Positions 10,637-45,321 of a stretch of DNA of 64,000 nucleotides are shown here, piece after piece. The stretch covers positions 1,178,001 through 1,242,000 of the forward strand of contig JAHCKM010000002.1 in NCBI GenBank assembly GCA_026125795.1. The letters run 5' to 3'. Both the position numbers and the translations under genes were made by a program. How positions within the stretch are numbered: the stretch's first letter is position 1; every line of letters begins with the position of its first letter. This DNA is from Burkholderiaceae bacterium. Its GTDB lineage: Bacteria; Pseudomonadota; Gammaproteobacteria; Burkholderiales; Burkholderiaceae_C. The notes beneath the pieces are model-generated. The model did not search any database and was not told the origin of the DNA. It worked only from the letters and a program-made list of their open reading frames with translations.

Positions 10637-11563
10637 ATGACCACCATCGCCTTCCTCGGCACCGGCCTGATGGGCACGGGCTTCATTCAACGCGCGCGCA
10701 CCAACGGCCTCACCGTGCGCGCCTGGAACCGCAGTGCGGCTAAGGCGCAGGCGCTGGCCGCCAGCGACGCTGCGGGTGGCGTCACCGCCTGCGCCACCGT
10801 GGCGCAGGCCGTGCAAGGGGCCGAGCGCATCCACCTCTCGCTGTCCGACGACGCCTCGGTCGACGCCGTGCTCGAGCCGCTGGCCGGCGTGCTGCCGTCC
10901 AGCGCCTGGGTGGTGGACCACACCACCACGGCGGTGCGCCCCACCGCCGAGCGCGTGGCGCGCTGGGACGCGCGTGGCGTGCGGTTCGTGCATGCGCCGG
11001 TGTTCATGGCGCCGGCCAATTGCGCCGAGGGTACCGGCTGGATGTTGATCTCGGGCGACCTCGCGCGGCGTGAGCGCGCCGGGCCGCTCCCAAGCGCGAA
11101 CTCCGGAGTGCGCAGCACGGAGGTCGTCGATCCGGCGTTGCAGGGCGCGCTGCAGGCGATGACCGGCAAGGTGATCTACCTGGGCCCGCAGCCCGAGCGC
11201 GCGGCGGCGTTCAAGCTGTTCGGCAACCTCACGCTGCTGGGGCTGCTGGGCATCCTCGGCGATGTGGGCCGGCTGGCCGCCGCGGTGGGCATCGACATGA
11301 AAGACGCGTTCAGCCTGTTCGAGCACTTCAATCCTGGGCAGACGCTGCCGCAGCGCGCCAAGCGCATCTCATCGGGCCAATACGATCCGCCGTCGTTCGA
11401 GATGTCGATGGCGAGGAAGGACCTGCGGTTGATGGTGGAAGAGGCGGCGCGTGGGGGGCAGACGCTCCAGCTGATTCCGGCGTTGGCGAAGTTGCTGGAC
11501 CAAGGCATTGCACGGGGCGAAGGGCATCTCGATGTGGCGGCGGGGGTCAGGGTGCCGGAGTGA
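10637..11563 (+). CDS. NAD(P)-dependent 3-hydroxyisobutyrate-dehydrogenase-like / 6PGDH-family protein
   Basis: Beta-hydroxyacid dehydrogenase of 308 aa. The N-terminal Rossmann fold has GTGLMGTGF (7-15); the catalytic lysine is K193 in FKLFGNLTLLG; the C-terminal helical domain includes FEHFNPGQTLPQRAKRISSGQY. Family members are about 290 aa; the surplus is a low-complexity stretch (about 144-166, RRERAGPLPSANSGVRST) between the NAD domain and the conserved MTGKVIYLGPQ, so the gene seems to carry a small in-frame insertion. The start ATG has GGAGC upstream. This is the intact parent of a family of gene fragments scattered to 45.3 kb. The substrate is unknown. Confidence 0.88.
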   Translation: MTTIAFLGTGLMGTGFIQRARTNGLTVRAWNRSAAKAQALAASDAAGGVTACATVAQAVQGAERIHLSLSDDASVDAVLEPLAGVLPSSAWVVDHTTTAVRPTAERVARWDARGVRFVHAPVFMAPANCAEGTGWMLISGDLARRERAGPLPSANSGVRSTEVVDPALQGALQAMTGKVIYLGPQPERAAAFKLFGNLTLLGLLGILGDVGRLAAAVGIDMKDAFSLFEHFNPGQTLPQRAKRISSGQYDPPSFEMSMARKDLRLMVEEAARGGQTLQLIPALAKLLDQGIARGEGHLDVAAGVRVPE

Positions 11564-12787
11564 GGCCAATCGCAGAAGATCGCTTGCATGCAGCGCTGCG
11601 CGAAGCCGGCATGCTCGACGTGCCGGAGCGTTTCTCGGTCGCGCTCGTGCCTCAGGTCATCCCTCGCGCGCTTCTGGCCGCCATCGAGAGCTTCATCGGC
11701 GTCTTCGACCGAGTGACGACGCGCCCGGCCTGGCAAGAGGCGATGACGGCGAACGGCCCCGCGATTGCCCGGCGGCGGCGCGCGGAGGTCTGCTTCTTCA
11801 GCGCGTGGGATTTCCATCTCCCGCCGGAGAGCCCCGATCGCTTCCAGCTCATCGAGTGCAATGACAATGGCTCGGGGATGATGTTCGCGGCGATCATCAA
11901 TCGCCTGTACTACGAGCTCTCCGGGCTCGGCGAGCGTTTCGCGCCCGAGGCACCGCCGACCGTTGCGGCCTTCGGTCAACGCGTGCTCGGCATGATCCGA
12001 CGGGAAGTTCCGGCCCTCTGCGTGGGGCGCTCGCTCGATCTCGTGCTGATCCTCGACGACGCGGAGTCTCTCGGTGAGGGCAAATTCAGAGACGAGCACC
12101 TTCTGCTGTGCCGACTGTGTCGAAGTGCCGGCTGGCGGGCCGAGACCGGCTCGCCCGCGGAGACCACGTGGGAACGTGGACAGTTGCTCTGCCGTGGCGA
12201 GCGTGTCGCGTTCGTGATCAACCGCTCGACCGACTTCCTTTGGGAGGCGGACGCCTTTTCGGCCCTGCGATCCGCGTACGCGGAGGGCTGCGTGGTGGTG
12301 GAGCCCAATCCGTTCACCTACGCAACGCGCAGCGACAAGCGCTTGCTCGAGCCGCTCTCGCGGCCGATCAGTGACGTCGAGCTCGGCATCCGGCCAGACG
12401 AGCGGGCCCTGCTGAGCGCTCACGTGCCGGAGACCCGTCTGCTGCGGGCCGAGAACGTCGACGAGCTCAGCTCTCAGAAGGAGCAGTGGTTCTTCAAGCC
12501 GTGCCATGGGTTCGCGAGCCACGGCATTCTCACGGCCGCGCAGGTCGGCCGCACGCGCCTGCGTCGACTCGTCAACAAAGGCGTTCCCTATGTGGCGCAG
12601 CGCAGAGCGCCGAAGGCCCGCGTGGACGGGAGCGGGAGCGGTCCTCTGTGGACCGACCTCCGCGTCTGGGCTTACCGCGGCGAGCGCGTCGTTCTATCAA
12701 GGCCGGGCATCCCGTGATCCCGACAGCATCGATCTGTCGCCGCCCGGGGGTTGGATGCCGACCTACGGCACAGCGGCGAGGTGCTGA
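11560..12787 (+). pseudogene. Circularly permuted ATP-grasp-like protein, frameshifted near the 3' end
   Basis: The frame from GTG 11560 (overlapping the dehydrogenase stop by 4 nt) encodes 385 aa ending at 12717. Motifs resemble circularly permuted ATP-grasp/glutathionylspermidine-synthase-like proteins: FQLIECNDNGSGMMF, EPNPFTYATRSDK, WFFKPCHGFASHGI and DLRVWAYRGERVV. The protein then ends abruptly in LSRPGIP. In another frame the DNA continues with ASRDPDSIDLSPPGGWMPTYG, which reads like the expected C-terminus and stops at 12787. A single indel near 12690-12710 therefore probably separates the two. Either the gene is broken or the assembly has a base error there. The function is unknown; related proteins ligate peptides or amines using ATP. 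Confidence 0.7.
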
Positions 12788-12892
12788 CGCATCGGCGGGC
12801 TTGATCTTGCGCAAGCAACACGGCGCGTCGCAGCCGTAGCTTGGCATTTTCATTCGTCCAGTGCGAGGACGCTGTGAATTTGGAGGTGTGTC

Positions 12893-13402
12893 ATGAGCCA
12901 TCGTCGTTCACGTCCTCAAGAACCGCAGCGGGTCTCGAACCAGCACTTCGCTTGGCACGACGCCGTCTCGCTGGGCGCGTTGCTGCTGGAGACCTACCAG
13001 CCTCGCCGGGTGCTGGAGCTGTTTCGCTCGCACACCTACCTGCAGCTGCACAACCTCGAAAAGCGTTGGCGCATCGAGGTGGCCGAGCTCATCGAGAAGA
13101 CCGAACGGCCGGCCGAACTGCGCCGTCTGGCCCAGGAGCACCCCGATCACCATGTGGCGGAGCTCGTCTTGCTGTTTGCCATCATGGGGCAGGTGAGGAC
13201 CTGCCGCATCCTCGAGATGCGTGACCGCTATCGGACGGCGATGATGGATGGGGCAGACAGCCTGCTGGAGTGCGCCGATTGGTACGAAATGTCGTGCCAT
13301 GTCGCCGAACTGTTCGAGACCTACGAGTTTCCGTTCGAGGTCTTCGCGGCCAGCGATGCCCGCGTTGAGTGGGGCGAATCGAAGTGGTCAGACGAGGCAT
13401 AG
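12893..13402 (+). CDS. Hypothetical protein, helical
   Basis: A 169-aa protein with a clear ribosome site (GGAGGTGTGTC before ATG). I do not recognise the family. It starts with a basic stretch (SHRRSRPQEP), is rich in predicted helix (LLLETYQPRRVLELFRS, ELIEKTERPAELRRL) and ends with an acidic tail (EWGESKWSDEA). No signal peptide, membrane segment or catalytic motif is apparent. It stands alone between the broken ATP-grasp gene and a dehydrogenase gene fragment. Confidence 0.7.
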   Translation: MSHRRSRPQEPQRVSNQHFAWHDAVSLGALLLETYQPRRVLELFRSHTYLQLHNLEKRWRIEVAELIEKTERPAELRRLAQEHPDHHVAELVLLFAIMGQVRTCRILEMRDRYRTAMMDGADSLLECADWYEMSCHVAELFETYEFPFEVFAASDARVEWGESKWSDEA

Positions 13403-13479: not shown

Positions 13480-13640
13480 GCCTGTTCGAGCACTTCAACC
13501 CCGGCCAGACGCTGCCGCAGCGTGGCAAGCGCATCAGCGCCGGGCAATACACGCCGCCGTCGTTCGAGATGTCGATGGCGCGCAAGGATTTGCGGCTGAT
13601 GATCGCCGAGGCCGCGCGCGGCGGGCAGACGCTGGCCGCT
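13480..13640 (+). pseudogene. Dehydrogenase gene fragment F1
   Basis: About 160 bp that match the parent dehydrogenase at 11307-11467: it reads LFEHFNPGQTLPQRGKRIS, then PPSFEMSMARKDLRLM and ARGGQTLA. It has no 5' part, start or 3' end and sits between the hypothetical gene and the terminator-like hairpin of the BNR-repeat gene. It is on the same strand as the parent. It is one of eight clear fragments in the window. Confidence 0.85.
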
Positions 13641-13677: not shown

Positions 13678-15237
13678 CTATCTGACGAACAGGATGCTCT
13701 GGCGGTCGTTGGCGTCGACGAACGTGCCGTTGTTGTTCTGGGGAAAGACGACCGGCAGGCCGAGGTTGTTCGCGACCGTGAATGCCGCGACGAAGTCGGT
13801 GCCAACGCTGGAGAGTCCGACGTAGTCACCCGGGAAGTAGCCGCGCGCGCCGGTGATCACCATTTGCCGCATGTCGAACGACGATGGCGTCAGGCGGCGC
13901 TCCCCGAGATAGTTCAGCGCGGCGTCGAACGTCGACAGCCAGACGTCGGTGGTCAGCGTTTCGTCGCCGAGCACGTCGTTGCGGAAGTCATAGAACAGCA
14001 CACCCACGGTGCCCGCCGAGTTCACGGCGACGATCGGCAGAAACGCCTGCTCCGAGGCCGGCCTGGCTTGATTGACGCGCACCGGTGCTGACCACGTTGC
14101 GCCGCCGTCCACCGAGCGTGCGACGACCACGCTCACGAGCCCGTTGGTGTTGACGCCGGCGTCCTGCCACGCCATGTAGAGATGCCCGGTCGTGCGGTTG
14201 ACCGCGATGCTCGGAATCTCCTGCGCGTCGCGCACCGGAACGCCGAGCTCGGGGTCGACCGCGGTGGTGCTCGCGAACGACGCGACACGCGAGTCCACGC
14301 GCGTCCAATGACGCCCCTGGTCGGTGGAGCGCAACACGGCCTGCTCGTATGTGACCTGGCCCGTCGTGTTGTCGAACAGGATGCGGAAATACGCGTTGAC
14401 GAGCGAGCGGTCCGGCAGCACGACGATCTGCGCGCCCTGGCGGAACACGGCCTGCTCGCCCGGACCCGTGCGGCCCATCGTCGCGACCGGCTTCGCCGGG
14501 CCCCACGTCAGGCCGCCGTCAGTGGAGCGCGCCACCACCACCGACGTGATGCCGGTGCGGAACAGCGTCCAGGTGGCGTAGACGAGGCGCGAGTCGTATG
14601 GGTCGGCGGTGATCGTGTTCTTGTCGTGGAACAGCGAGCGCGCGGTGGGATCCTGCGCCGGGTTGCGCGCGATCACGATCGGCGTTGACCACGTGGCGCC
14701 GCCGTCGGTCGAGCGCGCGACCGTCATCGCGTTCTCGTTCACCGAGCGCTGGCTGACGAGCGCCATGTAGTGCGCAGTGCCGTTGGGGCTGAAGCTGATC
14801 CACGGATCGGAGCCCCGCTCAAAGTCGCCCGACGAGCCGGGCGTGCCGCCCGAGCAGCGGGTGAACGGAATCGTCACCTGGGTCCAGCTCGCGCCGCCGT
14901 TCGTCGTGTAGGCGGCGCCGAGGCTTTGCGCGCTGCCCGTGCTCCAGCGGTCCTGGTGCCAGCCTGCAATCATGTTGTTCGGATTGGCGGGATTGACCGC
15001 GATGTGCGGCTCGGTTTCGCTGTTGCGATAGACCACGCCGGTTTGCGGCGCGCCGTTGCACGCGGTCACGGCCTGCGGGTCGTCTGGATCGCCGCCGTCC
15101 GGATTGCTGCTCAATCCGCTGATGAAGACCGTCTGCGCGTGCACCGCGCCGGTCCCCACTGCGGCGACCAGCGCGGCACCGAGCACTGCAACGCGCGCGT
15201 GGGCCGAGCGCCCCTGAATCCGTTGCCGGTGTGACAT
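13678..15237 (-). CDS. Exported BNR/Asp-box repeat protein (sialidase-like beta-propeller)
   Basis: Secreted protein of 519 aa. The ATG at 15237 is preceded by AAGGAGA at ideal spacing and gives a signal peptide (basic start, hydrophobic VAVLGAALVAAVGTGAVHAQ). The mature part has at least five Asp-box/BNR motifs (TTNGGASW, STDGGATW, STDGGLTW, STDQGRHW, SVDGGATW), the mark of a six-bladed sialidase-type propeller. It also has repeated IAVNP/IAVN strands. I see no complete sialidase catalytic set, so it may be a binding propeller rather than a glycosidase. It is a single gene ending at a strong hairpin; no operon partner is evident. Confidence 0.85.
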   Translation of the reverse strand: MSHRQRIQGRSAHARVAVLGAALVAAVGTGAVHAQTVFISGLSSNPDGGDPDDPQAVTACNGAPQTGVVYRNSETEPHIAVNPANPNNMIAGWHQDRWSTGSAQSLGAAYTTNGGASWTQVTIPFTRCSGGTPGSSGDFERGSDPWISFSPNGTAHYMALVSQRSVNENAMTVARSTDGGATWSTPIVIARNPAQDPTARSLFHDKNTITADPYDSRLVYATWTLFRTGITSVVVARSTDGGLTWGPAKPVATMGRTGPGEQAVFRQGAQIVVLPDRSLVNAYFRILFDNTTGQVTYEQAVLRSTDQGRHWTRVDSRVASFASTTAVDPELGVPVRDAQEIPSIAVNRTTGHLYMAWQDAGVNTNGLVSVVVARSVDGGATWSAPVRVNQARPASEQAFLPIVAVNSAGTVGVLFYDFRNDVLGDETLTTDVWLSTFDAALNYLGERRLTPSSFDMRQMVITGARGYFPGDYVGLSSVGTDFVAAFTVANNLGLPVVFPQNNNGTFVDANDRQSILFVR

Positions 15238-15305
15238 GACCGATCTCCTTGCATGTGAAGGGCGGCCATCGTGCGCCTGCAGCGCAAGCGGTGAACCCCC
15301 AACTT

Positions 15306-15653
15306 CTAGGGAACGGCGGGCATCACGCTTGCCGGCGCCGAAGCGGGCGCAATGGTACCGGCGTTGACCGGCGGCATCGTGACCCAGTCTTGGGATCGCG
15401 TGCTGAAGACGCCGCGCAACGGCATCGTCTTGTCGTCTCGCGGGTGAACTTGCAGCACGCCTCGATCGGCGCGATCCAGCCACGTGAGCAGGAGCAACCT
15501 GTCACCGACCCGGATATCAACCAGCGCAGCCTGCATCGACTGCTCAAACACGAGCACAGCGGGCGGTGCACCTTCCTCGCCCTGCTTGGGTGCGTCTTCA
15601 CGCTTGCGCAGCGGTGACTCCACGCGTCCGATGGGCCTGACGGAGAACTCCAT
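15306..15653 (-). pseudogene. TrmO/TsaA-like (UPF0066) gene, 3'-truncated
   Basis: The first 90 residues match the TsaA/TrmO family, which methylates tRNA t6A: MEFSVRPIGRVESPL, DRLLLLTWLDRADRGVLQVHPRDD and LRGVFSTRSQD. The family motif should continue STRSPxRPNPIGL, but here it changes to WVTMPPVNAGTI and a low-complexity Ala/Pro tail that ends at 15306 (115 aa in total versus about 150). The catalytic motif is therefore interrupted, and no other frame restores it. The gene is most likely a remnant. It lies upstream of the BNR-repeat gene on the same strand. Confidence 0.65.
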
Positions 15654-15754
15654 GGCGACCTCGTCTATCGTCGTCTGTCTGGAAGCGTCACCAAAGCTGT
15701 GGCAGGTCAGCGTGGAGACGACTGCCTACTTTCGCGCGGTGCCGGAATGGCCCG

Positions 15755-15961
15755 CTACTGCAGTCGGATCTCGCCGTCGAAGGCAACTTCGAGCTGCAGC
15801 CCGGCGATGTGCAGCGTCATCTTGGCCGGCAGCGTCTCGGTGCCCGCGATGGCCTTGGCCTCGATGGCCCTCGCCACCGCCTGCTCGATCTCGCGCTGCG
15901 AGTTGACGCCTACCGTCTTGAGAAACTTGCGAAGGCTGATGTTGAAGGTTTCCTGGTCCAT
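15755..15961 (-). CDS. DUF6494 family small protein
   Basis: A 68-aa protein beginning MDQETFNISLRKFLKTVGV, then SQREIEQAVARAIEAK and LPAKMTLHIAGL, with an acidic end (DGEIRLQ). This matches the short conserved DUF6494 family as I recall it; its function is unknown. A signal peptide and cysteines are absent, so it is probably cytosolic. It has no close operon partner: the truncated TrmO-like gene lies 101 bp downstream. Confidence 0.75.
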   Translation of the reverse strand: MDQETFNISLRKFLKTVGVNSQREIEQAVARAIEAKAIAGTETLPAKMTLHIAGLQLEVAFDGEIRLQ

Positions 15962-16170
15962 GACGGTCCTTTCGAGATCGCTGCGCAGCGCGTGCCTGCC
16001 ACTCTAGTCCCATCGACGGGCGCAGTCGGCTTGCTGGTCTGCGTCCACAACCGGTGTGCGCCCTGTCGCCGCTCAACTGCGCCGGCGCGCGGCTCCGGCA
16101 CGTGGAGCCGGCGCCGCGAGCGCGGCGCGCTGCCGAGTTCAGAGCGCGCCGAGCTTTCGAACTGATCGTG

Positions 16171-16275
16171 CACCTCAACTCCGGCCAGACGCTGCCGCAG
16201 CGCGCCAAAGCGCATCCGCGCCCGGCGGCACAGCCCGCTGTTGTTCGAAATGCCGATGCGCGCAAGGCCAACGCG
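16171..16275 (+). pseudogene. Dehydrogenase gene fragment F2 (decayed)
   Basis: Within the 330-bp gap 15962-16291 this stretch begins like the parent (NSGQTLPQRAK for NPGQTLPQRAK). After a 1-nt shift it continues RIRARR...LLFEMPMRK against RISSGQ...SFEMSMARK. It corresponds to parent 11335-11430. It is the most degenerate of the clear copies, and again on the + strand. Nothing else recognisable lies in the gap. Confidence 0.7.
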
Positions 16276-19857: not shown

Positions 19858-19928
19858 CCGTGACCTACCTGGGCCCGCAGCCCGAGCGCGCGGCGGGTTT
19901 GCGCTGCGCGCGAAAGGTCCGCCTTCGT
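19858..19928 (+). pseudogene. Dehydrogenase gene fragment F3 plus start of 90-bp element
   Basis: This stretch matches the parent around 11171-11208 (TYLGPQPERAAG) and then joins, at the same point as in fragment F5, the first ~30 nt of the 90-bp element (TTTGCGCTGCGCGCG...). It stops exactly against the stop codon of the minus-strand BTAD gene. The shared junction shows that F3 and F5 derive from the same interrupted copy. Confidence 0.75.
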
Positions 19929-21884: not shown

Positions 21885-21896
21885 CGATCCTCCCCT

Positions 21897-21913
21897 CGTG
21901 ACTGTCCCGTGAC
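21897..21913. promoter_or_regulatory. Direct repeat CGTGAC in divergent promoter region
   Basis: Two CGTGAC hexamers start at 21897 and 21908, one helical turn (11 bp) apart, in the short space between the divergent BTAD regulator and osmC. This spacing suits a winged-helix activator binding as a tandem dimer. Assignment as an operator is speculative. Confidence 0.25.
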
Positions 21914-21982
21914 GGACGCGGAATACGCTGGCCGGAGGCTATCGCAAACTCGACACATCGCCTATCAAAAGGAGCGCTCCCG

Positions 21983-22420
21983 ATGAACAACCCCCTTGCC
22001 ACGGCCAGCGCCAGTTGCCGCTTGTCCAACCAGGCCGGCCGCGCGCTGGTCACGCTGCGCGGACACCACGTGGTGACCGACTCGCCGCCCACACTCGGCG
22101 GGCCGAACGAAGCGCCGAATCCGGTCGAGCTGCTGCTGTCGGCATTGGCAGCCTGCGCGGTGTTCGTGTGCGAGCGCGCCGCGCACGAGATGGGCATCGC
22201 GCTGCAATCGATCGCCGTCACCGCGGCGGGCGACTTCGACCCGCGTGGCGTGTGCGGCGAGGCCATCGACCCACGCTTCCAGGCGTTCCGCGTGCGCTTG
22301 GCGATGGATGGACCCGATGCCGCACAGGCGCAGGCGCTGGTGCAGGCGTTCCGGACGCGCTGTCCGGTGTACACCACGCTGGCCCGCGCGGCGCCGGTGG
22401 AGATCACGCTCGCGCCGTGA
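21983..22420 (+). CDS. OsmC family protein
   Basis: A 145-aa OsmC/Ohr-fold protein. The two redox cysteines of the family are in SALAACAVFVCERAA and TRCPVYTTL, and PNPVELLLSALAAC is the typical helix. OsmC/Ohr proteins reduce organic hydroperoxides with thiol cofactors. The exact subclass is uncertain; the extra Cys in AVFVCER is unusual. AAAGGAGCG precedes the ATG. It is transcribed away from the BTAD regulator, and a small DUF1059 gene follows 56 bp later. Confidence 0.9.
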   Translation: MNNPLATASASCRLSNQAGRALVTLRGHHVVTDSPPTLGGPNEAPNPVELLLSALAACAVFVCERAAHEMGIALQSIAVTAAGDFDPRGVCGEAIDPRFQAFRVRLAMDGPDAAQAQALVQAFRTRCPVYTTLARAAPVEITLAP

Positions 22421-22476
22421 CGGCGCCGTGACGGCCAGGTGCTCCAGTGCCCACGTTTACACCAGGAGGAAAGTCG

Positions 22477-22911: not shown

Positions 22912-23034
22912 GCCAATTGCGCCGAGGGCGCCAGCTGGATGCTGATCTTGGTCGACCTCGCGCGGCGTGACCGCACCGGGCCGCTCCCAAGCGCGACCTC
23001 CGGAGTGCGAGGTCGTCGATCCGGCGCTGCGGGC
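22912..23034 (+). pseudogene. Dehydrogenase gene fragment F4
   Basis: About 120 bp similar to parent 11015-11143: NCAEGASWMLI, DLARRDRTGPLPSATSGV and then a small deletion. It contains the same GPLPSA insertion stretch as the parent gene, so the fragment was copied after that insertion entered the lineage. It lies on the + strand, immediately upstream of the peroxiredoxin gene. Confidence 0.8.
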
Positions 23035-23808: not shown

Positions 23809-23817
23809 TGCGCACGC

Positions 23818-27600: not shown

Positions 27601-27607
27601 CAGCGTC

Positions 27608-32452: not shown

Positions 32453-32463
32453 AGCGCAGGCTT

Positions 32464-37408: not shown

Positions 37409-37415
37409 CGGCACC

Positions 37416-40400
37416 ATGAGCCGAATGCTCTGGCTCGTCGCCCAAGTGGTTGCGGCCGCAACCACTTGGGTGGTCGCGATTCAGGAAGCCCGGGGAGCGA
37501 CCTGGTTGCAGACCAACACGGTCGGCCACTCCGCACCGATCATGCGAGTGGCCGCCGATGCGGCGCGCGACGTGGTCGTGACCGTGTCGGACGACAAGAC
37601 CGCTCGCGTGTGGGCGCTTTCCGATGGTCGCGCAATCGCCACGCTACGGCCCCCGGTGGGGCCGGCGCGTGTGGGGCGTCTCTTTGCCGTGGCCTTGCAT
37701 CCGCACGACAACGTCGTGGCGGTCGCAGGCAGCGGCAGCGCGGCCGTGGCGCCAGGGCCCTCGATCTGGCTCTTTAGCACCGCCAACGGGCAATTCGTCA
37801 ATCGCCTCGATGCCCGAGGCGAGCACGTCCGGCGCTTGCGGTGGTCAAGCGATGGGCGTCTGTTGCTGGCGTGTTTTGCCGAACCCGGGGCACTGCGCGC
37901 GTTCGAGGTCGCGACAGGCCGGATGGTGTACGAAGAGTCCTTCGGCGGCGACTGTCTGGCTGCCGCAGTGCGCGGCGAGCGCGTTGCCATTGGTGCTCGT
38001 GATGGCTCGGTGGCGATCTATCGCGCGGAACCTTCGGCGCTCGTGCCGCTGACGCGGTTTCGTGCCGCCGGCGACATCCTCTCGCTGGACTTCTCGCCCG
38101 ACGCGCGTCGCCTCGCCATCGGCTTCTACACCGTGGGCCTCGGGGCCGCCATCGTGTCCGCCGAGACGGGAGCGGTGGAACACGCGCTGCGGACTTCGCT
38201 TGACGTGCAGCAGCCCGGACCCGCGCAGCCGGTCAGCGTGACACAGGCCGTGCTGTGGAGCAGCGACGGCCGCGTGGTGACGACCGCCGGCATGACCGAC
38301 CACCGGCCGCGCGTGGAAGGACGAATTCAGCGCTTCGATGCGGCAACGGGACGACTGCTGCACTCGTCGGCGGTGGCCGAAGACACGATCCTCGACCTTG
38401 CGTCCGCGACGATCAGCAGCAAAGACGCGTTGGCCGGCGAGGCCGTCGTGTGGGCCAGCTTTGCGGGTACCTGGGGCGTATTTACCGCGCACACCGGGAG
38501 CGAACCGGTGGCAACCGTGCGCTCCAGGCCTGAGATCAATTTTCTGATCCGACAGGGCGCGCGCGAGTTGCTGGTTTCGCCAGATGCGCGCATCGTGCGC
38601 TGGGCGCAAGGGGTCGAGCGCGTTCCGATCTCGTTCGAGGTTGGTGCGCGTCGGGTCGGCGCCGGTCGAACCGATGGGCTCGTCACGCCGCGCGCGCGGC
38701 GCGGCCTCATCGACGCGGCACAGGACTTCGAGAACCATTTTCATCCGCGCGTTCGCGGACAAGCCATCGCCCTGCGCGTCGGTGAAGTGTCTCGCGCGCT
38801 CACCTACGTGGGTGACGATGGCGATGTGGTCCTGGCCACCAGCGAAGGGCTGCGGCGGCTGGACCGGTCCCTGCGGGTTGCATGGGACATGCGCACGGCG
38901 ACAGAAGTCCGCGCGGTCAATGCCACACCAGACGGCCGCCTCATCGTCACGACCATGAGTGACGGCACCGTGCGCTGGTGGCGGGCTCGCGACGGCGAGC
39001 TGCTGCTGTCTGCCCTCGTCATGCGCGACGGCTGGGTGCTGTGGATGCCCAGCGGGCACTATGACGCGAGCCATGGCGTGGAGTCGCGTGTCGGCTGGCT
39101 CATCGACCGAACCGATGGGCCATTGCCCGACTTCTTCACCGTGGGCCGCTTCCGCGACCGCTTCTATCGCCCAGATGTGATCGACCGCGTGCTCGAGACG
39201 GCCGACACGGGCCTCGCCATCCAGCAGGCCGATGCGGCGCGGGCTGCAAGTGCTCCGGGCGCGACAGCTTCGGCCCCACGGCAGTCGCCGGCTCCACCGA
39301 TTGCACCTGCGCCGACCATTGGCGCTGCCGCGGCCGTTGACCAGATTCAAGCGCCGGTCGACTTGCAGACGCCACCGGTTCTGACGCCGGTTGAGTCTCT
39401 GCGTCTCGATGACCGTGGCACCGGACCCGTCACGTTGCGATTTGCTTTGCGTCAGGGTCGTGCCGCAGGCGGCGTTCAACTGGAGGCGCGCCTCGACGGA
39501 CGCCTGGTGGACCCGATGAGCGTGCGCTTGCCCGTCACGCTGGACGGTCAGCAGGCTGGTGAGATCAGCTTAACCGTCGGCAGCGAGATTCACGTCGTGC
39601 AGTTGGTCGCACGCGTGGGCGAGCTTGCCTCCGAGCCAGTGCGTTTTCAGGTTGATCGATCGGGCGTGCGCTCGCTCGAACCGAACGGCCCGACGGGCAC
39701 GCTGTTCCTGGTGTCGATCGGCATCAGCAAATACGCCGAGCCAAGCATCCGGCTCCTGATGCCGGCCAAGGATGCGGTGGACTTCGTCGAAGTGATGAAG
39801 CGTCAGCGAGGTCAACTCTACGAGGCGGTCGAGGCCACGATACTGCTCGACGCTCAAGCCACGCGGCCCGCGATCGAAGGTGCGATGCGATGGCTTCGGG
39901 AGAAGGTCAAGGCCGGTGATATCGGGGTGATCTTCGTTGCCGGCCATGGCACGAACAACTCGAAAGGTGAATACCACTTCGTGCCGTACGAGTTCGAGCT
40001 TTCGCGGCCGGACGACACGACCGTCCCGGGTCGTGTCTTCTCTGATGCGCTGACGCATCTGCGGGGGCGGCCGCTGCTGTTCCTGGATACTTGTTTTGCG
40101 GGTGGGGTGCTGGGCGGAGCCACGGTGCAGACAGCTGGTTTCGCGAACGCGATTTCGGCACCTGAGAACTCGGTGATCGTGTTCGCATCCAGCACCGACA
40201 AGCAGGAATCCTTGGAGCGTCGTTCTTGGGGCAATGGCGCCTTCACCAAGGTGTTGGTAATGGGGTTGAACGGCGCGGCGAGCTTACCTTCGACGCCTGC
40301 CGTGACGACACGCAGCTTGAGGCCGTTTGTTCTCGACGGAGTGAACCGCCTGACCGAAGGCCAGCAAAGCCCGGTGGCAATCATCCCGGACGCTGTGCCG

Positions 40401-40436
40401 GAGCGAATACTGTCCGTGCCGCAGCGTGGGCCGTAG
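37416..40436 (+). CDS. Exported WD40-repeat / caspase (peptidase C14) protein
   Basis: A 1006-aa protein. Residues 1-28 look like a signal peptide (MLWLVAQVVAAATTWVVAI, then EARGATW). WD40-like blades occupy about 40-560 (DVVVTVSDDKTARVWALSDG, RLIVTTMSDGTVRWWRARDG). An Ala/Pro linker follows (about 610-650), then a beta-sandwich segment. The C-terminus is a caspase-type protease: H844 in FVAGHGTN and C893 in LFLDTCFAGG form the dyad. It would act outside the cytoplasm, unlike most bacterial caspases. It follows a lipoprotein gene by 7 bp and may be its protease partner. A perfect 30-bp palindrome covers 37441-37470, inside the signal-peptide region. Substrate unknown; a P1 Arg/Lys preference is likely for prokaryotic C14 members. 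Confidence 0.9.
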   Translation: MSRMLWLVAQVVAAATTWVVAIQEARGATWLQTNTVGHSAPIMRVAADAARDVVVTVSDDKTARVWALSDGRAIATLRPPVGPARVGRLFAVALHPHDNVVAVAGSGSAAVAPGPSIWLFSTANGQFVNRLDARGEHVRRLRWSSDGRLLLACFAEPGALRAFEVATGRMVYEESFGGDCLAAAVRGERVAIGARDGSVAIYRAEPSALVPLTRFRAAGDILSLDFSPDARRLAIGFYTVGLGAAIVSAETGAVEHALRTSLDVQQPGPAQPVSVTQAVLWSSDGRVVTTAGMTDHRPRVEGRIQRFDAATGRLLHSSAVAEDTILDLASATISSKDALAGEAVVWASFAGTWGVFTAHTGSEPVATVRSRPEINFLIRQGARELLVSPDARIVRWAQGVERVPISFEVGARRVGAGRTDGLVTPRARRGLIDAAQDFENHFHPRVRGQAIALRVGEVSRALTYVGDDGDVVLATSEGLRRLDRSLRVAWDMRTATEVRAVNATPDGRLIVTTMSDGTVRWWRARDGELLLSALVMRDGWVLWMPSGHYDASHGVESRVGWLIDRTDGPLPDFFTVGRFRDRFYRPDVIDRVLETADTGLAIQQADAARAASAPGATASAPRQSPAPPIAPAPTIGAAAAVDQIQAPVDLQTPPVLTPVESLRLDDRGTGPVTLRFALRQGRAAGGVQLEARLDGRLVDPMSVRLPVTLDGQQAGEISLTVGSEIHVVQLVARVGELASEPVRFQVDRSGVRSLEPNGPTGTLFLVSIGISKYAEPSIRLLMPAKDAVDFVEVMKRQRGQLYEAVEATILLDAQATRPAIEGAMRWLREKVKAGDIGVIFVAGHGTNNSKGEYHFVPYEFELSRPDDTTVPGRVFSDALTHLRGRPLLFLDTCFAGGVLGGATVQTAGFANAISAPENSVIVFASSTDKQESLERRSWGNGAFTKVLVMGLNGAASLPSTPAVTTRSLRPFVLDGVNRLTEGQQSPVAIIPDAVPERILSVPQRGP
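37441..37470. repeat. Perfect 30-bp palindrome within caspase 5' coding region
   Basis: Left arm CCCAAGTGGTTGCGG is exactly mirrored by CCGCAACCACTTGGG, with a GCGGCCGC centre. It begins 25 nt after the caspase start codon and encodes the hydrophobic part of the signal peptide. As RNA it could form a 13- to 15-bp hairpin that would impede translation; as DNA it could be a dimeric-protein site. A perfect 15-bp arm is very unlikely by chance. Confidence 0.85.
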
Positions 40437-40451: not shown

Positions 40452-40570
40452 GAATTCAAGCAGACGGAGACAGCAGCCCTCTGTCCAGTCGGTACAGCGC
40501 GGTCTGCTCGGGGCGGTGGCGCTCGTAATGAACAGGGGAACAGGGGCGCCATCCGGCGCCTTGCGCCGGT

Positions 40571-40625
40571 GAGCCCGCAGCCCGAGCGCGCGGCAGCATT
40601 CAAGCTGTTCGAGCACTTCAACCAG
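40571..40625 (+). pseudogene. Dehydrogenase gene fragment F7 (internal deletion)
   Basis: In the 328-bp gap 40437-40764, this short piece matches parent 11190-11222 (PQPERAAAFKLF) joined directly to parent about 11316-11333 (FEHFN). The junction falls in a short near-repeat (AAGCTGTTCG versus AGCCTGTTCG) found at both ends of the missing part. Nothing else recognisable lies in the gap. Same strand as the parent. Confidence 0.75.
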
Positions 40626-40764: not shown

Positions 40765-43071
40765 ATGCTCTCACGACGAATCGCGCCATTGTGGGTCTGG
40801 GTATCGACGGCTTTCTTGGTGTCATGCGGAGGTGGCGGCGGAGGCGATGGCGGCGACGGCGGTAGTACCGTGCAGCCCGTCCTCTACACCGGCAACACCA
40901 GCGCGGCGAGCATCACGACGCTCAATGCGTCCAAACTGGTTGCCAACCTGCTCGGCAACGAGCAGGCGGCCACGACCATCGTCGGGCCGACTGGCACCTC
41001 CGGGGACGCCGCCCGATCTGCTGGGCGCAGAGTGGACCGCATGTCGCTCTGGCTCGGTCGCCGGGTGCGTGAGCGGTCGCAGTCGGCCAGCGGGGAGCGT
41101 GTCTCGCCGCAGGACACTGTCGACGAGACCGCCCCCTGTGACAACGGCGTGGGTTCTATTCACACGACCGGCACGGTCAGCAACACCGACTACACCGGGA
41201 CGCTGACACTCGTCTTCAGCGGCTGCCTGGTCGACACCAGCACGCTGGACGGCACGGCCACGTTGCGCGTGGATGCATTCGATCTGGGCTTCGGAGTGCC
41301 CACGGACTTCACGCTGAGCTTCGTGAGGCTCGCGATCCGCGGAACCGGGCTGAGCGTGGACAGCGGTGGAAGCCTTCGCATGCAGGTTGACTTGGCCGGC
41401 AAAACCGAGACGCTGACGTCGAACCTCGTGTCGATCGACAACCTGGCGGCGCGACAGTCGAAGACCGAGAACCTCGTCCTGGCGAGCCGCTACGACAACG
41501 GGGTGTCGCCCAATTCGTTCACCGCGATCGTCAGCGGGCGGATCTATGACCAGGTGCATGGCTATGTGGATGCCGCCACGCCCGTGCCCTTGGCTTTTGC
41601 GACGCCGAATCAGCTCTTCCCCGACCGCGGGCAGATCGTGTTGACGGGCCAATCGCAGCACCGCATCCGTGCCACGGCGCTGTCGACCGCGGTGGTCAGG
41701 CTGGAGCTCGACCTCGGCGGTGGCTATCCGATCGGCGAGTTCGCCGTCGTCGGATGGACGCAGCTCGCCGGTCCAGCGGGCGCCGACATCGGCGACGACG
41801 ACAACGATGGCCTGCACAACAGCTGGGAGGCCGCCAACGGGCTCGACCCGAACAGCGCGAGCGATGCGGCAACCGACAGCGACGCCGATGGCAACAGCAA
41901 CATCCGCGAGTACTACGCGGGAGCCGACCCGCGCAGCGCGGGGCCTGTCGTGGTGCCCGATGCCACGGTCGAGGCGGCGCCCTTCTTCGCTGCCGCGACG
42001 GGTTACCCCGCCGGCACGGCTTCTACGGCCATCGCCGTGGGCGACTTCAACGGCGATGGACAGCCCGATCTGGTGCTGTCGCACTGGAGTGACGCCAGCG
42101 TTTCGCTCATGCTCGGCAACGGCGCGGGCGCCTTCGGTGCACCCGCCGCGTTCCCGGTGGGGGCCAATCCCTGGGCGTTGGCCACCGGTGACTTCAACGC
42201 CGACGGCAAGCTCGACCTCGCCGTAGCCAATTTTGGCGGGCCGAGCGTTTCGATCCTGCTCGGCAACGGTTCGGGCGGCTTCGGCGCACCAGCCGACATT
42301 GCGTTGGCAGGCCAACTGAATCCCACGGCGATCGCGGTGGGTGACTTCAACAACGACGGCACGCCGGATCTCGCCGTGACCATGGCCTACGGCTTCAGCA
42401 ACACCACGCCCGGTCATGTCGCGATCCTGCTGGGCAACGGGGCGGGTGGCTTCGGTGCACCTGCGAACTCTGCGGTGGGCGGCACACCGGCCTGGGTGGC
42501 CACGGGCGACTTCAATGGCGACGGCAAGCTCGATCTGGCGGTCGCCAACATGCTGGTCGGCACCGTGTCGGTTCTGCTCGGTGACGGCGCGGGCAGCTTT
42601 GTGGCCGCCCCTGATCTGGTCATTGATGGGCGGCCGGGTGCCGTGGTGGTCGGAGACTTCAATGGTGACGGCAAGACCGATCTTGCGGTGATGGTCAACT
42701 CGAGCGTGCTCAACGCAGCCGGCGTTGCCGTCTTCTCTGGCAGTGGCACGGGGACATTCGGCTCGGCCACGACCCTGGTGCTCGATCGCGCGAATGGAGC
42801 CTTTCTCACCGGCCTGGCGCTCGTCGACTTCAATGCGGATGGCAGGCTCGATCTTGCAGTCAGCGATCAGCGAGAGAACCGCGCGTTCGTCCTCCTCGGT
42901 GACGGGGCCGGCTCCTTCGGCATGACCAATTACGACGTTAGCCTGGCCGGAGCCCCCGATGGGCTGGCTGCCGGCGACTTCAACGGCGATGGCAGGCCCG
43001 ATCTGGTGGCCGCGACAGGCGACGGCACCAACGCAGCGACCGCGTCGGTCTCCCTCAACACCTTGCCGTAG
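40765..43071 (+). CDS. FG-GAP/VCBS repeat lipoprotein
   Basis: A 768-aa lipoprotein: signal peptide with lipobox LVSC, Cys21, and a Gly-rich linker. A calcium-binding thrombospondin-3-like stretch (DDDNDGLHNSWE, DSDADGNSN, near 350-385) leads into seven FG-GAP/VCBS repeats with the DFNGDGxPDL pattern (for example DFNGDGQPDLVLS, DFNADGKLDLAVA, DFNNDGTPDLAV), which fold as a Ca2+-binding beta-propeller. The N-terminal 330 residues are not recognised. It is probably an outer-membrane or surface protein. No operon partner is evident; it converges on three small lipoprotein genes. Confidence 0.88.
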   Translation: MLSRRIAPLWVWVSTAFLVSCGGGGGGDGGDGGSTVQPVLYTGNTSAASITTLNASKLVANLLGNEQAATTIVGPTGTSGDAARSAGRRVDRMSLWLGRRVRERSQSASGERVSPQDTVDETAPCDNGVGSIHTTGTVSNTDYTGTLTLVFSGCLVDTSTLDGTATLRVDAFDLGFGVPTDFTLSFVRLAIRGTGLSVDSGGSLRMQVDLAGKTETLTSNLVSIDNLAARQSKTENLVLASRYDNGVSPNSFTAIVSGRIYDQVHGYVDAATPVPLAFATPNQLFPDRGQIVLTGQSQHRIRATALSTAVVRLELDLGGGYPIGEFAVVGWTQLAGPAGADIGDDDNDGLHNSWEAANGLDPNSASDAATDSDADGNSNIREYYAGADPRSAGPVVVPDATVEAAPFFAAATGYPAGTASTAIAVGDFNGDGQPDLVLSHWSDASVSLMLGNGAGAFGAPAAFPVGANPWALATGDFNADGKLDLAVANFGGPSVSILLGNGSGGFGAPADIALAGQLNPTAIAVGDFNNDGTPDLAVTMAYGFSNTTPGHVAILLGNGAGGFGAPANSAVGGTPAWVATGDFNGDGKLDLAVANMLVGTVSVLLGDGAGSFVAAPDLVIDGRPGAVVVGDFNGDGKTDLAVMVNSSVLNAAGVAVFSGSGTGTFGSATTLVLDRANGAFLTGLALVDFNADGRLDLAVSDQRENRAFVLLGDGAGSFGMTNYDVSLAGAPDGLAAGDFNGDGRPDLVAATGDGTNAATASVSLNTLP

Positions 43072-43075
43072 GTGG

Positions 43076-43120
43076 TGGGACGAGGGGATCGCGTGCATGC
43101 AGGGGCGGCTGCAGCGGCGG
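43076..43120 (+). pseudogene. Possible dehydrogenase gene fragment F9
   Basis: In the short space after the FG-GAP gene, the run GGACGAGGGGATCGCG matches fragment F8 exactly (codons DEGIAR) and corresponds to parent about 11500-11515, with weak similarity for 30 nt beyond. The fragment is too short to be sure. If real, it is a ninth copy, again on the + strand. Confidence 0.35.
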
Positions 43121-43143
43121 GCCACGCCGCGGCCGCGACGCGA

Positions 43144-43686
43144 TCAATCGCCCCGCTGCCGATAAAGGTGCCAGGTCCGGAACGACGCGTACATCGGCAC
43201 CACGATGACAACGCCGCCGCCCCGATCGCTTTCCTCGACCACCAGATCTCCGCGGGTGGTGCGCGCCAGCCGCGCCACGCGACGGTGCACCACGCCCAGC
43301 AGCGTGAGCTCGGGTTGTCGCCGTTCGAGCCATCCGCCGTTGCACTCGTAGTCGGTGCCTTCGCGCAGCTCGCGTTGCAGCAACGCGATGCCCTTGTCGT
43401 CGAGCAGACGCAGCAGCAGAACGCCCGCAGCGGGGCCGGTCAGTTGGACGCGGTGCACCACCTGAAGCGAGTCGGCGGTCTGCAGCAGCCACTTGGCCAG
43501 CGGCACCGGCTGCGCCTCGTCGACGTCGCGATTGTCGAACGAGCCTGTCAGGCCGGGGCAGCCGGCCCCTGAAACCTGCAGCGCCGGCCAATAGCGAGGG
43601 TACTCGTCGGTCTTGACCGAGACGCAACCCATCGCCAGCGCAACAAAACCCCCGAGGGTCAACAGGGTCGCGCAAGCGCGTCTCAT
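43144..43686 (-). CDS. Lipoprotein, hypothetical (third of three)
   Basis: A 180-aa lipoprotein: MRRACATLLTLGGFVALAMGC with lipidation at Cys21. A beta-rich body with PALQVSGAGCPGLTGSFDNR and a terminal WHLYRQRGD. The family is not recognised. The ATG at 43686 overlaps the stop of the preceding gene (ATGA), so translation is coupled. It shares with its neighbour the pattern CPxxxGxxxN, suggesting paralogy. Confidence 0.7.
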   Translation of the reverse strand: MRRACATLLTLGGFVALAMGCVSVKTDEYPRYWPALQVSGAGCPGLTGSFDNRDVDEAQPVPLAKWLLQTADSLQVVHRVQLTGPAAGVLLLRLLDDKGIALLQRELREGTDYECNGGWLERRQPELTLLGVVHRRVARLARTTRGDLVVEESDRGGGVVIVVPMYASFRTWHLYRQRGD

Positions 43687-44333
43687 GGCGTGGGTGCCGA
43701 AGCAGTCGGCGCCGGCGCAGGGGCGGCGCGCCAGCGCAGGTGATTGGTCATGGTGCCCGACATGCCCACCACCAAGTGGTACCCGACCATGCGTTGTCGC
43801 ACGGTCATCACCAGCTCGCCGGCCGTGTTGCGCGCGAACGCCCTCGAATGGTGGTTGGCACCACCGGACAGCATCAGGATGCCGAGCGCCGTCATGCCGG
43901 GGTTGCCGAGCATCGATCGCGTGTCGCTGAGATAGAGCGATTCCGCGTCGCACTGGAAGTCGCGCCCTCTGTGCAACTGCCGCACAGTGCCGGGTGCGCC
44001 GCTGGCATCGGTGACGCTGACGGTGAGCGTGTCTCCATCGGGTTGCGCGAGCGAGGCCATGGCCCCGTCCTCAGCGAGGCCGAGGTTGTTCGTCAGGCGC
44101 AGGCTGCAGTCCCACAGCCCTCTCTCGGGCGCGCCGGTCGCCGGACACGCTGCGCCAGCTTCGAGGTGCATTTGCCCCAGGTTGACGTACCTGCCCGAGA
44201 TCACCGGGCAGACGCCGATTCGCTCGGCCGCGGGTGCAGGCCAATCCAGCGGGTAGGGCGGATTTTGCGAGACCGCAATGCAGCCGGCGAGCGGCGCCAG
44301 CAGCAGGGCAAGCCCCGGGCCGGTCAACCTCAA
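43683..44333 (-). CDS. Lipoprotein, hypothetical (second of three)
   Basis: A 216-aa lipoprotein starting at TTG 44333 (overlap TTGA with the gene before), giving MRLTGPGLALLLAPLAGC with Cys18 as lipidation site. A longer frame upstream lacks a signal peptide at its start, so TTG is preferred. The mature part has AERIGVCPVISGRYVNLGQ, similar in style to the CPGLTGSFDN of the next gene, and a second Cys pair. It ends with an Ala/Pro-rich tail. Function unknown; probably one operon of envelope proteins. Confidence 0.6.
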   Translation of the reverse strand: MRLTGPGLALLLAPLAGCIAVSQNPPYPLDWPAPAAERIGVCPVISGRYVNLGQMHLEAGAACPATGAPERGLWDCSLRLTNNLGLAEDGAMASLAQPDGDTLTVSVTDASGAPGTVRQLHRGRDFQCDAESLYLSDTRSMLGNPGMTALGILMLSGGANHHSRAFARNTAGELVMTVRQRMVGYHLVVGMSGTMTNHLRWRAAPAPAPTASAPTP

Positions 44334-45028
44334 GGAGCGACCTTCTGGGCGAACACCACGACGCGCATCGGGACGGGCCACTCGCGGCTGAGCGCGAGGA
44401 TGCGATCGACGATCTGCCGGGCCACGCCATTCAGCGCGCTCTCTTCGGTATCGGTGGTCGTGTACAAGCGGGCCAGCATCAGCGGCGTGTCCGGAACCCA
44501 ACCGTCCTTTTCCTCGCCCACCGCGGTGGCGATGACCTTGATGCGCTCCGGCTCGGGCGTTGCGATGCCGACCAACACGGCTTCCCGTGTCGTCTCCTCA
44601 GTCCACTTGGAGTAGAAAGCCGCGACTTCCTTCACCTGTTTGCGCACCGGCTTCGATTCAGGTCCCAACACGACGATGAAGCGCACGCCCGGATCAGCCA
44701 CGCCCGCACCCGAGCGTGCCGCCAGAACCTGGCTCAACCTGGCCTCGGTGCCCTGCTCGGCGAAAGCGGCCTTCCACATATCGTCCGGTTCGACGAATTC
44801 GATCTTGTCCGACTGCTGGCGCATCGCTGTCTTGAACTTGTAGGCGAATGCCAGGTGGACGTCGGGCCCGATCATCGGGTCCCACTGCGCGTCGACCGGC
44901 TCCGACCGCACCGTGGGCGTGACGTGCTGCTCCCCCACGCGGATGGGGATGCAGGCCACCAGCAGTGAGGCCACGGCGATGAACGTCCAGCCAGCCCGCC
45001 ATGGGCGGATCGAACCGATGACTTGCAC
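44330..45028 (-). CDS. Lipoprotein, hypothetical (first of three)
   Basis: A 232-aa protein from GTG 45028, which has AAAGGA just upstream and gives a signal peptide ending LLVAC (Cys26). An in-frame start at 45100 would add 24 residues without a ribosome site. The mature region has VRFIVVLGPESKPVRKQVKEV and a helical C-terminus (ALNGVARQIVDRILAL). Not recognised. First of three consecutive, overlapping lipoprotein genes. Confidence 0.6.
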   Translation of the reverse strand: MQVIGSIRPWRAGWTFIAVASLLVACIPIRVGEQHVTPTVRSEPVDAQWDPMIGPDVHLAFAYKFKTAMRQQSDKIEFVEPDDMWKAAFAEQGTEARLSQVLAARSGAGVADPGVRFIVVLGPESKPVRKQVKEVAAFYSKWTEETTREAVLVGIATPEPERIKVIATAVGEEKDGWVPDTPLMLARLYTTTDTEESALNGVARQIVDRILALSREWPVPMRVVVFAQKVAP

Positions 45029-45127
45029 AAGGTCCTTTCGCAGGGGTCGCAACCGCTTGATCGTGCCAGCCCTCACTGGACGCCCCTTGCCCGAGATCAA
45101 AGGTGGGCCGAGGCATCGTCCGGCTGG

Positions 45128-45321
45128 TGGTCGAGCGGGAGCTGCAGAGCGCGCTGCAGGCGATGACCGGCCGGGTGATCTACCTGGGCCCGCAGCCCGA
45201 ACGCGCGGCCGGGCAGACGCTGGCGATGGTGCCGGCGCTGGCCAGGCTGTTGGACGAGGGGATCGCGCGGGGGGACGGGCAGCTGGATGTGGCGGCAGGG
45301 GTGAGGGTGCCGACCGCCTGA
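45128..45321 (+). pseudogene. Dehydrogenase gene fragment F8 (internal deletion)
   Basis: Reads ALQAMTGRVIYLGPQPERAA, then jumps to GQTLAMVPALARLLDEGIARG and ends VAAGVRVP before a stop, so it keeps the parent's own 3' end (parent 11130-11212 joined to 11455-11563). About 240 bp are missing, with the join in a GCGCGxx repeat. It is the last clear fragment and lies between the lipoprotein operon and the selenium-binding-protein gene. Confidence 0.82.

What the first reader, a model, noticed from the sequence alone, without database searches (positions are those of the whole stretch)
10637..45321. Eight same-orientation fragments of one dehydrogenase gene scattered over 35 kb
Fragments F1-F8 (13480, 16171, 19858, 22912, 27078, 30030, 40571 and 45128) all come from the 3' half of the gene at 10637 (parent 11015-11563), none from the 5' half, and all are on the + strand. 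They lie between gene blocks, never in an intact gene. A ninth, short match is at 43076. Random gene decay would not give this. It could reflect repeated insertion of cassettes by homology to this gene's end, or a duplication mechanism that spreads it.
Basis: seen in the sequence. Interest (0 to 1): 0.85.

Follow-up and report, generated by a model that had tools for sequence, protein, structure and literature searches.

The report
Gene-end scars mark repeated DNA insertions
Next to one intact dehydrogenase gene this bacterium carries eight broken copies of that gene's second half, all pointing the same way and separated by unrelated genes, which looks like a fossil record of foreign DNA being inserted again and again by matching this gene's end.

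Summary
Confirmed: eight fragments of the dehydrogenase gene at 10637-11563, all on the + strand, all from gene nt 379 onward, lie at 13480-45312. A whole-genome search found no other beyond a REP-like insert the gene carries and four weak matches; it scored 40 of 558 candidates. The ninth match (43076) is chance.

The place is a cassette hotspot. In sister G005 the gene ends 127 bp before the ortholog of window 51965-52628; in other sisters fragments lie downstream or upstream of the gene, in gene orientation. Cargo differs by species. No Phage_integrase match lies in the hotspot and no Resolvase match in the genome. Intact orthologs are mosaic, with a breakpoint at nt 561-616, where several fragments have a junction (571/574).

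Best reading: repeated insertion-duplication by homologous recombination (Campbell-like, or one-sided entry of DNA linked to this gene's 3' part), each event leaving a direct, 5'-truncated copy that later recombines and erodes. Array, orientation, mosaicism and missing recombinases are shown; the mechanism is inferred. New variant of a known kind.

The parts
10637..11563 (+). intact parent gene, NAD(P)-dependent dehydrogenase of the 6PGDH/HIBADH kind, 308 aa
   Evidence: Pfam NAD_binding_2 1.1e-23, NAD_binding_11 1.2e-6 just under its cut-off; orthologs in 4 of 5 sister genomes
11066..11123 (+). REP-like repeat inserted in frame in the parent (gene nt 430-487); absent from G001, G004, G005, present in G002 and F4 (end of it in F5)
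   Evidence: 20 other matches of the own genome to this stretch; alignment
13480..13633 (+). fragment F1, gene nt 677-830
   Evidence: E 2.1e-41; 92.6% over 149 bp to the G004 gene
16162..16267 (+). fragment F2, gene nt 679-about 786
   Evidence: E 5.4e-11; 85% to the G004 gene
19860..19927 (+). fragment F3, gene nt 535-571 followed by the start of element x
   Evidence: E 1.5e-11; 97% over 68 bp to F5
22912..23033 (+). fragment F4, gene nt 379-508, carries the REP-like insert
   Evidence: E 1.1e-38
27078..27605 (+). fragment F5, gene nt 466-575, element x, nt 574-906
   Evidence: E 2.6e-40 and 2.0e-111
27188..27273 (+). element x in F5 (about 86 bp, hairpin-rich repeat)
   Evidence: F5 and F6 are the 2 own-genome matches at E 0.01, 40 of 54 candidates scored; tandem x-like copies in G121; fold
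30020..30478 (+). fragment F6: stub of gene nt 415-434, element x, nt 574-920
   Evidence: E 1.9e-105; 91% to the G004 gene
40570..40621 (+). fragment F7: gene nt 545-586 joined to nt 670-695 through a CTGTTCG repeat
45126..45312 (+). fragment F8: gene nt 486-569 joined to nt 820-921
   Evidence: E 3.4e-26 and 1.4e-18
11560..13402 (+). cassette 0: two + strand ORFs without Pfam match
13678..15961 (-). cassette 1: BNR-repeat protein, DUF6494; two pieces are 92-93% identical to two separate own-genome places on contig C1
16292..19770 (-). cassette 2: ArsA ATPase, DUF2703, argC-like semialdehyde dehydrogenase
   Evidence: argC stretch 84 and 81% identical to a Methylobacterium and a Roseomonas plasmid, ArsA 74% to an Ideonella dechloratans plasmid
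19929..22683 (.). cassette 3: BTAD/TPR regulator (-), OsmC (+), DUF1059 (+)
22939..27015 (.). cassette 4: AhpC-type peroxiredoxin (+), guanylate cyclase-AAA-TPR protein (-)
27606..29322 (+). cassette 5: Trans_reg_C-TPR regulator
30534..40436 (.). cassette 6: ORF without Pfam match, PNPOx-GAF protein, hemerythrin, RCC1/Ig-like protein, WD40-caspase protein
40765..45100 (.). cassette 7: FG-GAP repeat protein (+) and two - strand ORFs without Pfam match
45383..51900 (.). block after the last fragment, beginning with SBP56 selenium-binding protein
51965..52628 (-). stretch whose ortholog lies 127 bp downstream of the intact gene in sister G005
   Evidence: 87.8% over 664 bp; positions
5192..7333 (+). 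conserved left flank (3-hydroxyacyl-CoA dehydrogenase), syntenic in the 4 sisters that have the gene
7472..10576 (+). SIR2-nSTAND gene in the variable slot between left flank and parent
   Evidence: Pfam; weak PADLOC ThsA match 8.3e-13

Best explanation
A chromosomal gene-acquisition hotspot that grows by homologous insertion-duplication. DNA that carries the 3' part of this dehydrogenase next to foreign genes enters, pairs with the resident gene (or with an older fragment) and inserts, so that one whole gene is kept and the other copy remains as a direct, same-strand, 5'-truncated fragment behind the new genes. Repetition gives gene - cassette - fragment - cassette - fragment. Fragments go on recombining with the intact gene (3' block exchange starting near nt 574, where element x interrupts several fragments) and decay by deletion and mutation. 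Shown: the array, orientation, 3' bias, species-specific cargo, mosaic gene, no Phage_integrase match in the hotspot and no Resolvase match in the genome. Inferred: that entry was RecA-dependent, whether the donor was circular (Campbell) or linear with one homologous end, and the order of events.
For: Eight fragments, one strand, none from nt 1-378, none found elsewhere in the genome. Similar pattern in other genus members: G004 two fragments, G001 one (marginal, 43 bp, E 7e-6, 47 bits against 43 in controls), G002 at least one, in gene orientation and from nt 377 onward. In G005 the gene is followed after 127 bp by the ortholog of window 51965-52628. G002 contig C250 reads gene 3' end - one 1143-aa gene - fragment (nt 377 to stop), with 96.4% identity between the two 3' ends over 169 bp; contig C390 stops inside the gene at nt 626 and C250 starts at about nt 759, so the first is probably the intact gene's own end. 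By eye, copies that reach the gene's end show unrelated sequence from about the stop codon on. Quartet sites in the four intact orthologs that span the gene switch from own+G005 (14 of 20 before nt 590) to own+G004 (22 of 25 after); best breakpoint nt 561-616, Fisher 1.9e-6, permutation 5e-5. At nt 831 and 832 all six copies read there (F1, F5, F6, F8 and both G002 3' ends) carry the G005/G001 state and differ from the own and G004 genes, as expected if fragments keep an older 3' end. In the long fragments F5, F6 and the G002 one, 50-60% of differences from the own or G004 gene are at third codon positions except F5 and the G002 fragment against G004 (about half), while changes found in no intact gene are 3-4%: they were functional alleles until fairly lately. 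Cassette G+C 0.66-0.70 is that of the window (0.676). None of the 11 Phage_integrase matches of the genome lies in the hotspot; no Resolvase match; the gene was not found in the plasmid, phage or viral collections.
Against: Recombination is common here anyway: the neighbouring 3HCDH gene is also mosaic (PHI p 0.0055 with four, 0.0005 with five species), and a PHI test with fragments included over nt 578-890 was not significant (p 0.18). At other sites of nt 616-747 the fragments mostly carry the own state, so the older-3'-end signal is confined to about nt 780-861 and mixed (own:other states F5 13:8, F6 13:5, F1 4:8, F8 3:6). F2 (15 of 108) and F4 (4 of 57) have more changes of their own, not at third positions. 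Divergence of fragments does not rise with distance from the gene. Upstream fragments in G004 and G001 need an extra deletion step. F4 and the G002 fragment share the left edge (nt 377-379) beside unrelated genes, which a purely random joint would not predict. Cassette genes have plasmid relatives (13 plasmid records match the 24.9 kb searched), so an unseen plasmid step is possible. No closely related strain with and without one cassette was available; only 6 genomes of the genus are held.
Confidence: 0.55

Rival explanations
1. Site-specific integration into the gene with restoration of its 3' end, as recalled for elements in icd or tRNA genes: each element brings its own nt 380-to-stop and displaces the resident 3' end downstream.
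For: Explains one strand, 3' part only, fragments ending near the stop codon; F4 and the G002 fragment share the left edge nt 377-379.
Against: No Phage_integrase match in the hotspot, no Resolvase match in the genome, no integrase among the 31 of 46 picked window ORFs scanned with Pfam; other left edges are 415, 466, 486, 535, 545, 677, 679, though erosion could move them; fragments lie upstream of the gene in G004 and, marginally, G001.
Confidence: 0.13
2. Old tandem duplication: one partial copy arose once in the genus ancestor, was amplified in place by unequal crossing-over, and foreign genes then landed between the copies by unrelated means.
For: Element x sits at nt 571/574 in F3, F5, F6 and the G002 fragment and precedes the upstream G004 fragment, so some fragments share ancestry.
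Against: Cassettes share no sequence with each other, as amplification of a unit would predict; most fragments show few changes of their own; the G002 fragment is closest to its own species' gene where that gene is known (96.1% over 51 nt; nt 377-415).
Confidence: 0.17
3. One-time duplication followed by ordinary decay, the 3' bias and orientation being chance.
For: Only eight fragments; F2, F3 and F7 match over 55, 37 and 42 bp.
Against: Chance of the 3' bias alone about 2e-4 (limit taken from the data) and of one strand 2^-7 in the own genome; repeated in sister species.
Confidence: 0.05

Closest known systems
[quoted passage not shown] 2017, PMC5635113; abstract and passages seen)
   Same: Variable genes next to conserved flanks, no integrase, recombination in the bordering gene.
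   Different: [quoted passage not shown] here one gene is the anchor and leaves direct partial copies behind each block.
Merodiploid formation by transformation through repeats in Streptococcus pneumoniae (PMC3784515; abstract and passages seen)
   Same: Homologous entry of DNA partly repeated in the chromosome creates direct duplications.
   Different: There tandem duplications of about 100-900 kb at truncated IS repeats; here foreign cassettes of a few kb at a metabolic gene.
Homology-facilitated illegitimate recombination (PMC3240628; start of abstract seen in the listing)
   Same: One homologous end and one illegitimate end could explain variable left edges.
   Different: What I saw does not describe a repeated process that builds an array.
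maf genomic islands of Neisseria with silent 3' cassettes (PMC4287609; passages seen)
   Same: Full-length gene accompanied by start-less copies of its 3' part.
   Different: There the copies are alternative toxin ends; here homology runs to the stop codon of a dehydrogenase and the new genes begin after it.
Islands integrated in the 3' end of coding genes, such as e14 in icd (recalled; one search found no paper on it)
   Same: Displaced 3' gene fragments in gene orientation.
   Different: No integrase, no constant core.

Membership tests
Homologous-recombination hotspot (PMC5635113) | variable gene content between conserved flanks | tested here: met
   left flank syntenic in the 4 sisters that have the gene; cargo differs; right-hand shared sequence found from own C2:1252641 on, partly rearranged
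Homologous-recombination hotspot (PMC5635113) | no mobile-element integrase | tested here: met
   Pfam scans of 31 of 46 picked window ORFs
Homologous-recombination hotspot (PMC5635113) | recombination in the bordering conserved gene | tested here: met
   quartet breakpoint nt 561-616; 3HCDH also mosaic; rate against the rest of the genome not tested
Homologous-recombination hotspot (PMC5635113) | natural transformability of the host | not tested
   no competence genes were searched
Site-specific island in a coding gene's 3' end | tyrosine or serine recombinase in the element | tested here: not met
Site-specific island in a coding gene's 3' end | constant core at the left edge of displaced fragments | tested here: inconclusive
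   edges 377-379 (two), 415, 466, 486, 535, 545, 677, 679; erosion may have moved some
Integron / cassette array | integron integrase nearby | tested here: not met
   no Phage_integrase match in the hotspot
Integron / cassette array | attC sites between cassettes | not tested
   no attC model was run; Rfam at gathering threshold found nothing in the window
Polymorphic-toxin locus with silent 3' cassettes | parent is a secreted toxin with exchangeable C-terminus | tested here: not met
   parent is a dehydrogenase; copies keep the same 3' end
IS-flanked translocatable units | insertion sequences as the repeats | tested here: not met
   repeats are gene fragments; no transposase in Pfam scans 12-14, 45 (IstB_IS21 appears only as one of many P-loop matches of the ArsA protein)

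The most novel reading that the evidence does not exclude
The truncated gene ends are working address tags: cassettes flanked by direct copies of one gene's 3' half move by the cell's own homologous recombination (excision as a circle of cassette plus one fragment, re-entry at any copy), a recombinase-free counterpart of an integron with the intact dehydrogenase as the landing site. Cargo around the gene in the genus includes toxin-antitoxin (HigB-like, Phd/PIN), SIR2-STAND, cyclase-AAA and caspase-type genes.
Probability: 0.12. Interest if true: 0.75.

Novelty: new variant of a known kind. Interest (0 to 1): 0.5.

Why it matters
Accessory-gene hotspots without integrases rarely leave a trace of how genes got in (my judgement, not from a call). 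Here partial gene copies look like oriented scars of single insertion events, so the entry mechanism of a hotspot without integrases could be read and tested strain by strain. It also shows how a metabolic gene can serve as a repeated docking site while staying intact.

Tried and rejected
Ninth fragment at 43076: chance (E 3.9). REP-like insert in the parent as cause of the fragments: rejected, since it is a dispersed repeat with 20 matches elsewhere and only F4 and the edge of F5 contain it. Element x as recombination site: kept only as a boundary; at E 0.01 a 105-bp query around it matched F5 and F6 alone in the own genome (the 31-bp piece in F3 was seen by eye), 24 of 200 family genomes incl. 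the own gave matches, nearly all weak, x-like tandem copies stand at the end of another gene in G121 (smpB is my reading of the translation, no call named it), and F7 has an uninterrupted junction there. Further repeats shared by cassettes: none found. Plasmid, phage or viral carriers of the gene: none. RNA families in the window: none at gathering threshold. Mosaic tests: fragments included p 0.18; five intact genes over nt 1-431 p 0.93 and nt 1-626 p 0.77; four intact genes over nt 1-890 p 0.0005 (my own PHI script). Age order by distance from the gene: not seen. The first alignment had G001 wrongly trimmed and unmasked ends; its pairwise table was replaced. Two quartet sites at the edges of the REP insert (nt 432, 498) were dropped before the counts. 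Literature: searches listed no paper on arrays of one gene's 3' fragments between cassettes; I saw titles and abstract starts of listed papers only (15 of 1,652, 12 of 21, 6 of 9), and 3 of 10 searches were unused, so this is no proof of absence.
Full report
Observation. The gene at 10637-11563 encodes a 308-aa NAD(P)-dependent dehydrogenase of the 6PGDH/HIBADH kind. Against the whole own genome (6.57 Mb, 6 contigs; window = contig C2:1178001-1242000) the gene gives 36 matches (40 of 558 first-look candidates scored): itself, 10 HSPs that make up 8 fragments at window 13480-45312, one short inverted match inside the gene, 20 matches to a REP-like element carried by the gene at nt 430-487, and 4 weak ones (E 6.6e-5 to 8e-4). 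All 8 fragments are on the + strand; the leftmost gene base covered is nt 379. The ninth match is chance (E 3.9). Eight control stretches of 7-20 kb give nothing above 42.8 bits; the best HSPs of the 8 fragments have 60 to 395 bits.

Surroundings. Between the fragments lie one to five genes each, on both strands: BNR and DUF6494; ArsA, DUF2703 and an argC-like gene; a BTAD regulator, OsmC, DUF1059; a peroxiredoxin and a cyclase-AAA-TPR protein; a regulator; PNPOx-GAF, hemerythrin, RCC1 and WD40-caspase proteins; an FG-GAP protein; then SBP56. Cassette G+C is 0.66-0.70, the left flank 0.676; the SIR2-STAND gene upstream of the parent is lower, 0.563. Apart from the gene and what it carries, no sequence recurs among different cassettes of the array (wider search, which also showed a direct duplication further right, see below). 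At E 1e-20 few cassette genes have DNA matches in the five sister genomes (40 candidates scored per genome). Of plasmid records, 13 match the 24.9 kb searched, none over most of it: the argC stretch is 84 and 81% identical to a Methylobacterium and a Roseomonas plasmid, ArsA 74% to an Ideonella dechloratans plasmid; argC is 83% identical to sister G001 on a contig other than that of the gene. Two pieces of cassette 1 are 92-93% identical to two separate places on own contig C1.

Relatives. Six genomes of the genus are held, this one included. The fifth, G003 (82% complete), matched only the REP-like element. The left flank (3HCDH and genes before it) is syntenic in the other four. In G005 the gene is followed after 127 bp by the ortholog of window 51965-52628, with no fragment between the 3HCDH gene and that ortholog. 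Sequence right of the G005 and G004 hotspots matches the own genome from C2:1252641 on, partly rearranged, so the own variable region is about 63 kb against at most about 8 kb in G004 and 11-20 kb in G005. G004 has a fragment upstream of the intact gene, next to a HigB-like toxin gene (E 4.6e-13), and one 1.2 kb downstream (77 bits); four further clusters there are at control level. G001 has a marginal 43-bp fragment upstream, next to a Phd/PIN pair. G002 contig C250 begins with the gene's last 169 bases, then a 1143-aa SAM-cyclase-AAA gene, then a fragment from nt 377 to the stop; the two 3' ends are 96.4% identical. Contig C390 ends inside the G002 gene at nt 626, so the first copy is probably the gene's own end; this was not proved. 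All these sister fragments run in gene orientation.

Anatomy of the fragments. Left edges are nt 377-379 (F4 and the G002 fragment), 415, 466, 486, 535, 545, 677, 679. Element x, about 86 bp and rich in hairpins (fold z about -2), sits at nt 571/574 in F3 (its start only), F5, F6 and the G002 fragment, and stands before the upstream G004 fragment, there joined to nt 673. F7 has an internal deletion between CTGTTCG repeats. By eye, copies that reach the gene's end are followed by unrelated sequence from about the stop codon on.

History. F1 and F6 are closer to the G004 gene (88.7 and 91.7%) than to the own gene (80.5 and 85.0%); F5 is closest to G002 (89.5% over 124 nt) and the own gene (88.1%). 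In F5, F6 and the G002 fragment third codon positions hold the largest share of differences from the intact genes, and changes found in no intact gene are 13 of 385, 10 of 313 and 15 of 347; F2 (15 of 108) and F4 (4 of 57) are more decayed. The long fragments thus look like working alleles until fairly lately. In the four intact orthologs that span the gene, quartet sites support own+G005 before nt 590 (14 B, 3 A, 3 C) and own+G004 after (22 A, 2 B, 1 C); best breakpoint nt 561-616, Fisher 1.9e-6, permutation 5e-5; PHI p 0.0005. At nt 831 and 832 own and G004 genes share one state and all six other copies read there (F1, F5, F6, F8 and both G002 3' ends) carry the G005/G001 state; at nt 833 five of six do. 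At nt 616-747, by contrast, fragments mostly carry the own state. So the 3' block of the own intact gene differs in history from its 5' part, and its last part (about nt 780-861) also from the fragments. As a caution, the neighbouring 3HCDH gene is mosaic too (PHI p 0.0055 with four and 0.0005 with five species); the ORF at 3835-5071 (thiolase is my label) is not clearly so (0.27 and 0.053), and a test with fragments included over nt 578-890 was not significant (p 0.18).

Mechanism. The pattern fits insertion-duplication by homologous pairing with the gene's 3' part. Donor DNA with that part joined to foreign genes inserts so that the whole gene is kept and a 5'-truncated copy stays behind the new genes. 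A circle entering by one crossover, or a linear piece with one homologous and one illegitimate end, would both do; the varied left edges favour the second, the shared edge of F4 and the G002 fragment favours re-use of a ready-made unit. Element x would bar the left part of a fragment from restoring a working gene, so that exchanges seen in intact genes start just after it; this last point is inference. Site-specific integration is less likely because the 11 Phage_integrase matches of the genome all lie outside the hotspot, there is no Resolvase match, and edges vary.

Novelty. Hotspots without integrases, fed by homologous recombination in bordering genes, are known (PMC5635113, abstract and passages), and so are transformation-made duplications through repeats (PMC3784515, abstract and passages). 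What I did not find in the listings is an array in which one gene's 3' half recurs behind successive cassettes. I file it as a new variant of a known kind.

Noticed in passing
L024 2329-3060 and 16494-17234 (about 66329 and 80494 on the window scale): A second direct duplication in or beside the same variable region: a 750-bp stretch with a small infA-like gene, 81% identical, 14 kb apart, same orientation. The gene name is my reading of the translation.
   Followed up: partly
window 15384-15678 and 15754-16040: Pieces of cassette 1 are 92-93% identical to two different places on own contig C1, the second 1.3 kb from a Phage_integrase match.
   Followed up: partly
window 11066-11123: REP-like element inserted in frame in the dehydrogenase, shared with G002 but not G001, G004, G005.
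   Followed up: partly
L124 around 1440-1580: Tandem copies of an x-like hairpin repeat at the end of another gene in a different genus of the family.
   Followed up: no
slot between the 3HCDH gene and the dehydrogenase in own, G001, G002, G004: Different presumed defence or toxin-antitoxin genes in each: SIR2-nSTAND, Phd/PIN, DUF2971, HigB-like; G005 has other genes there.
   Followed up: partly
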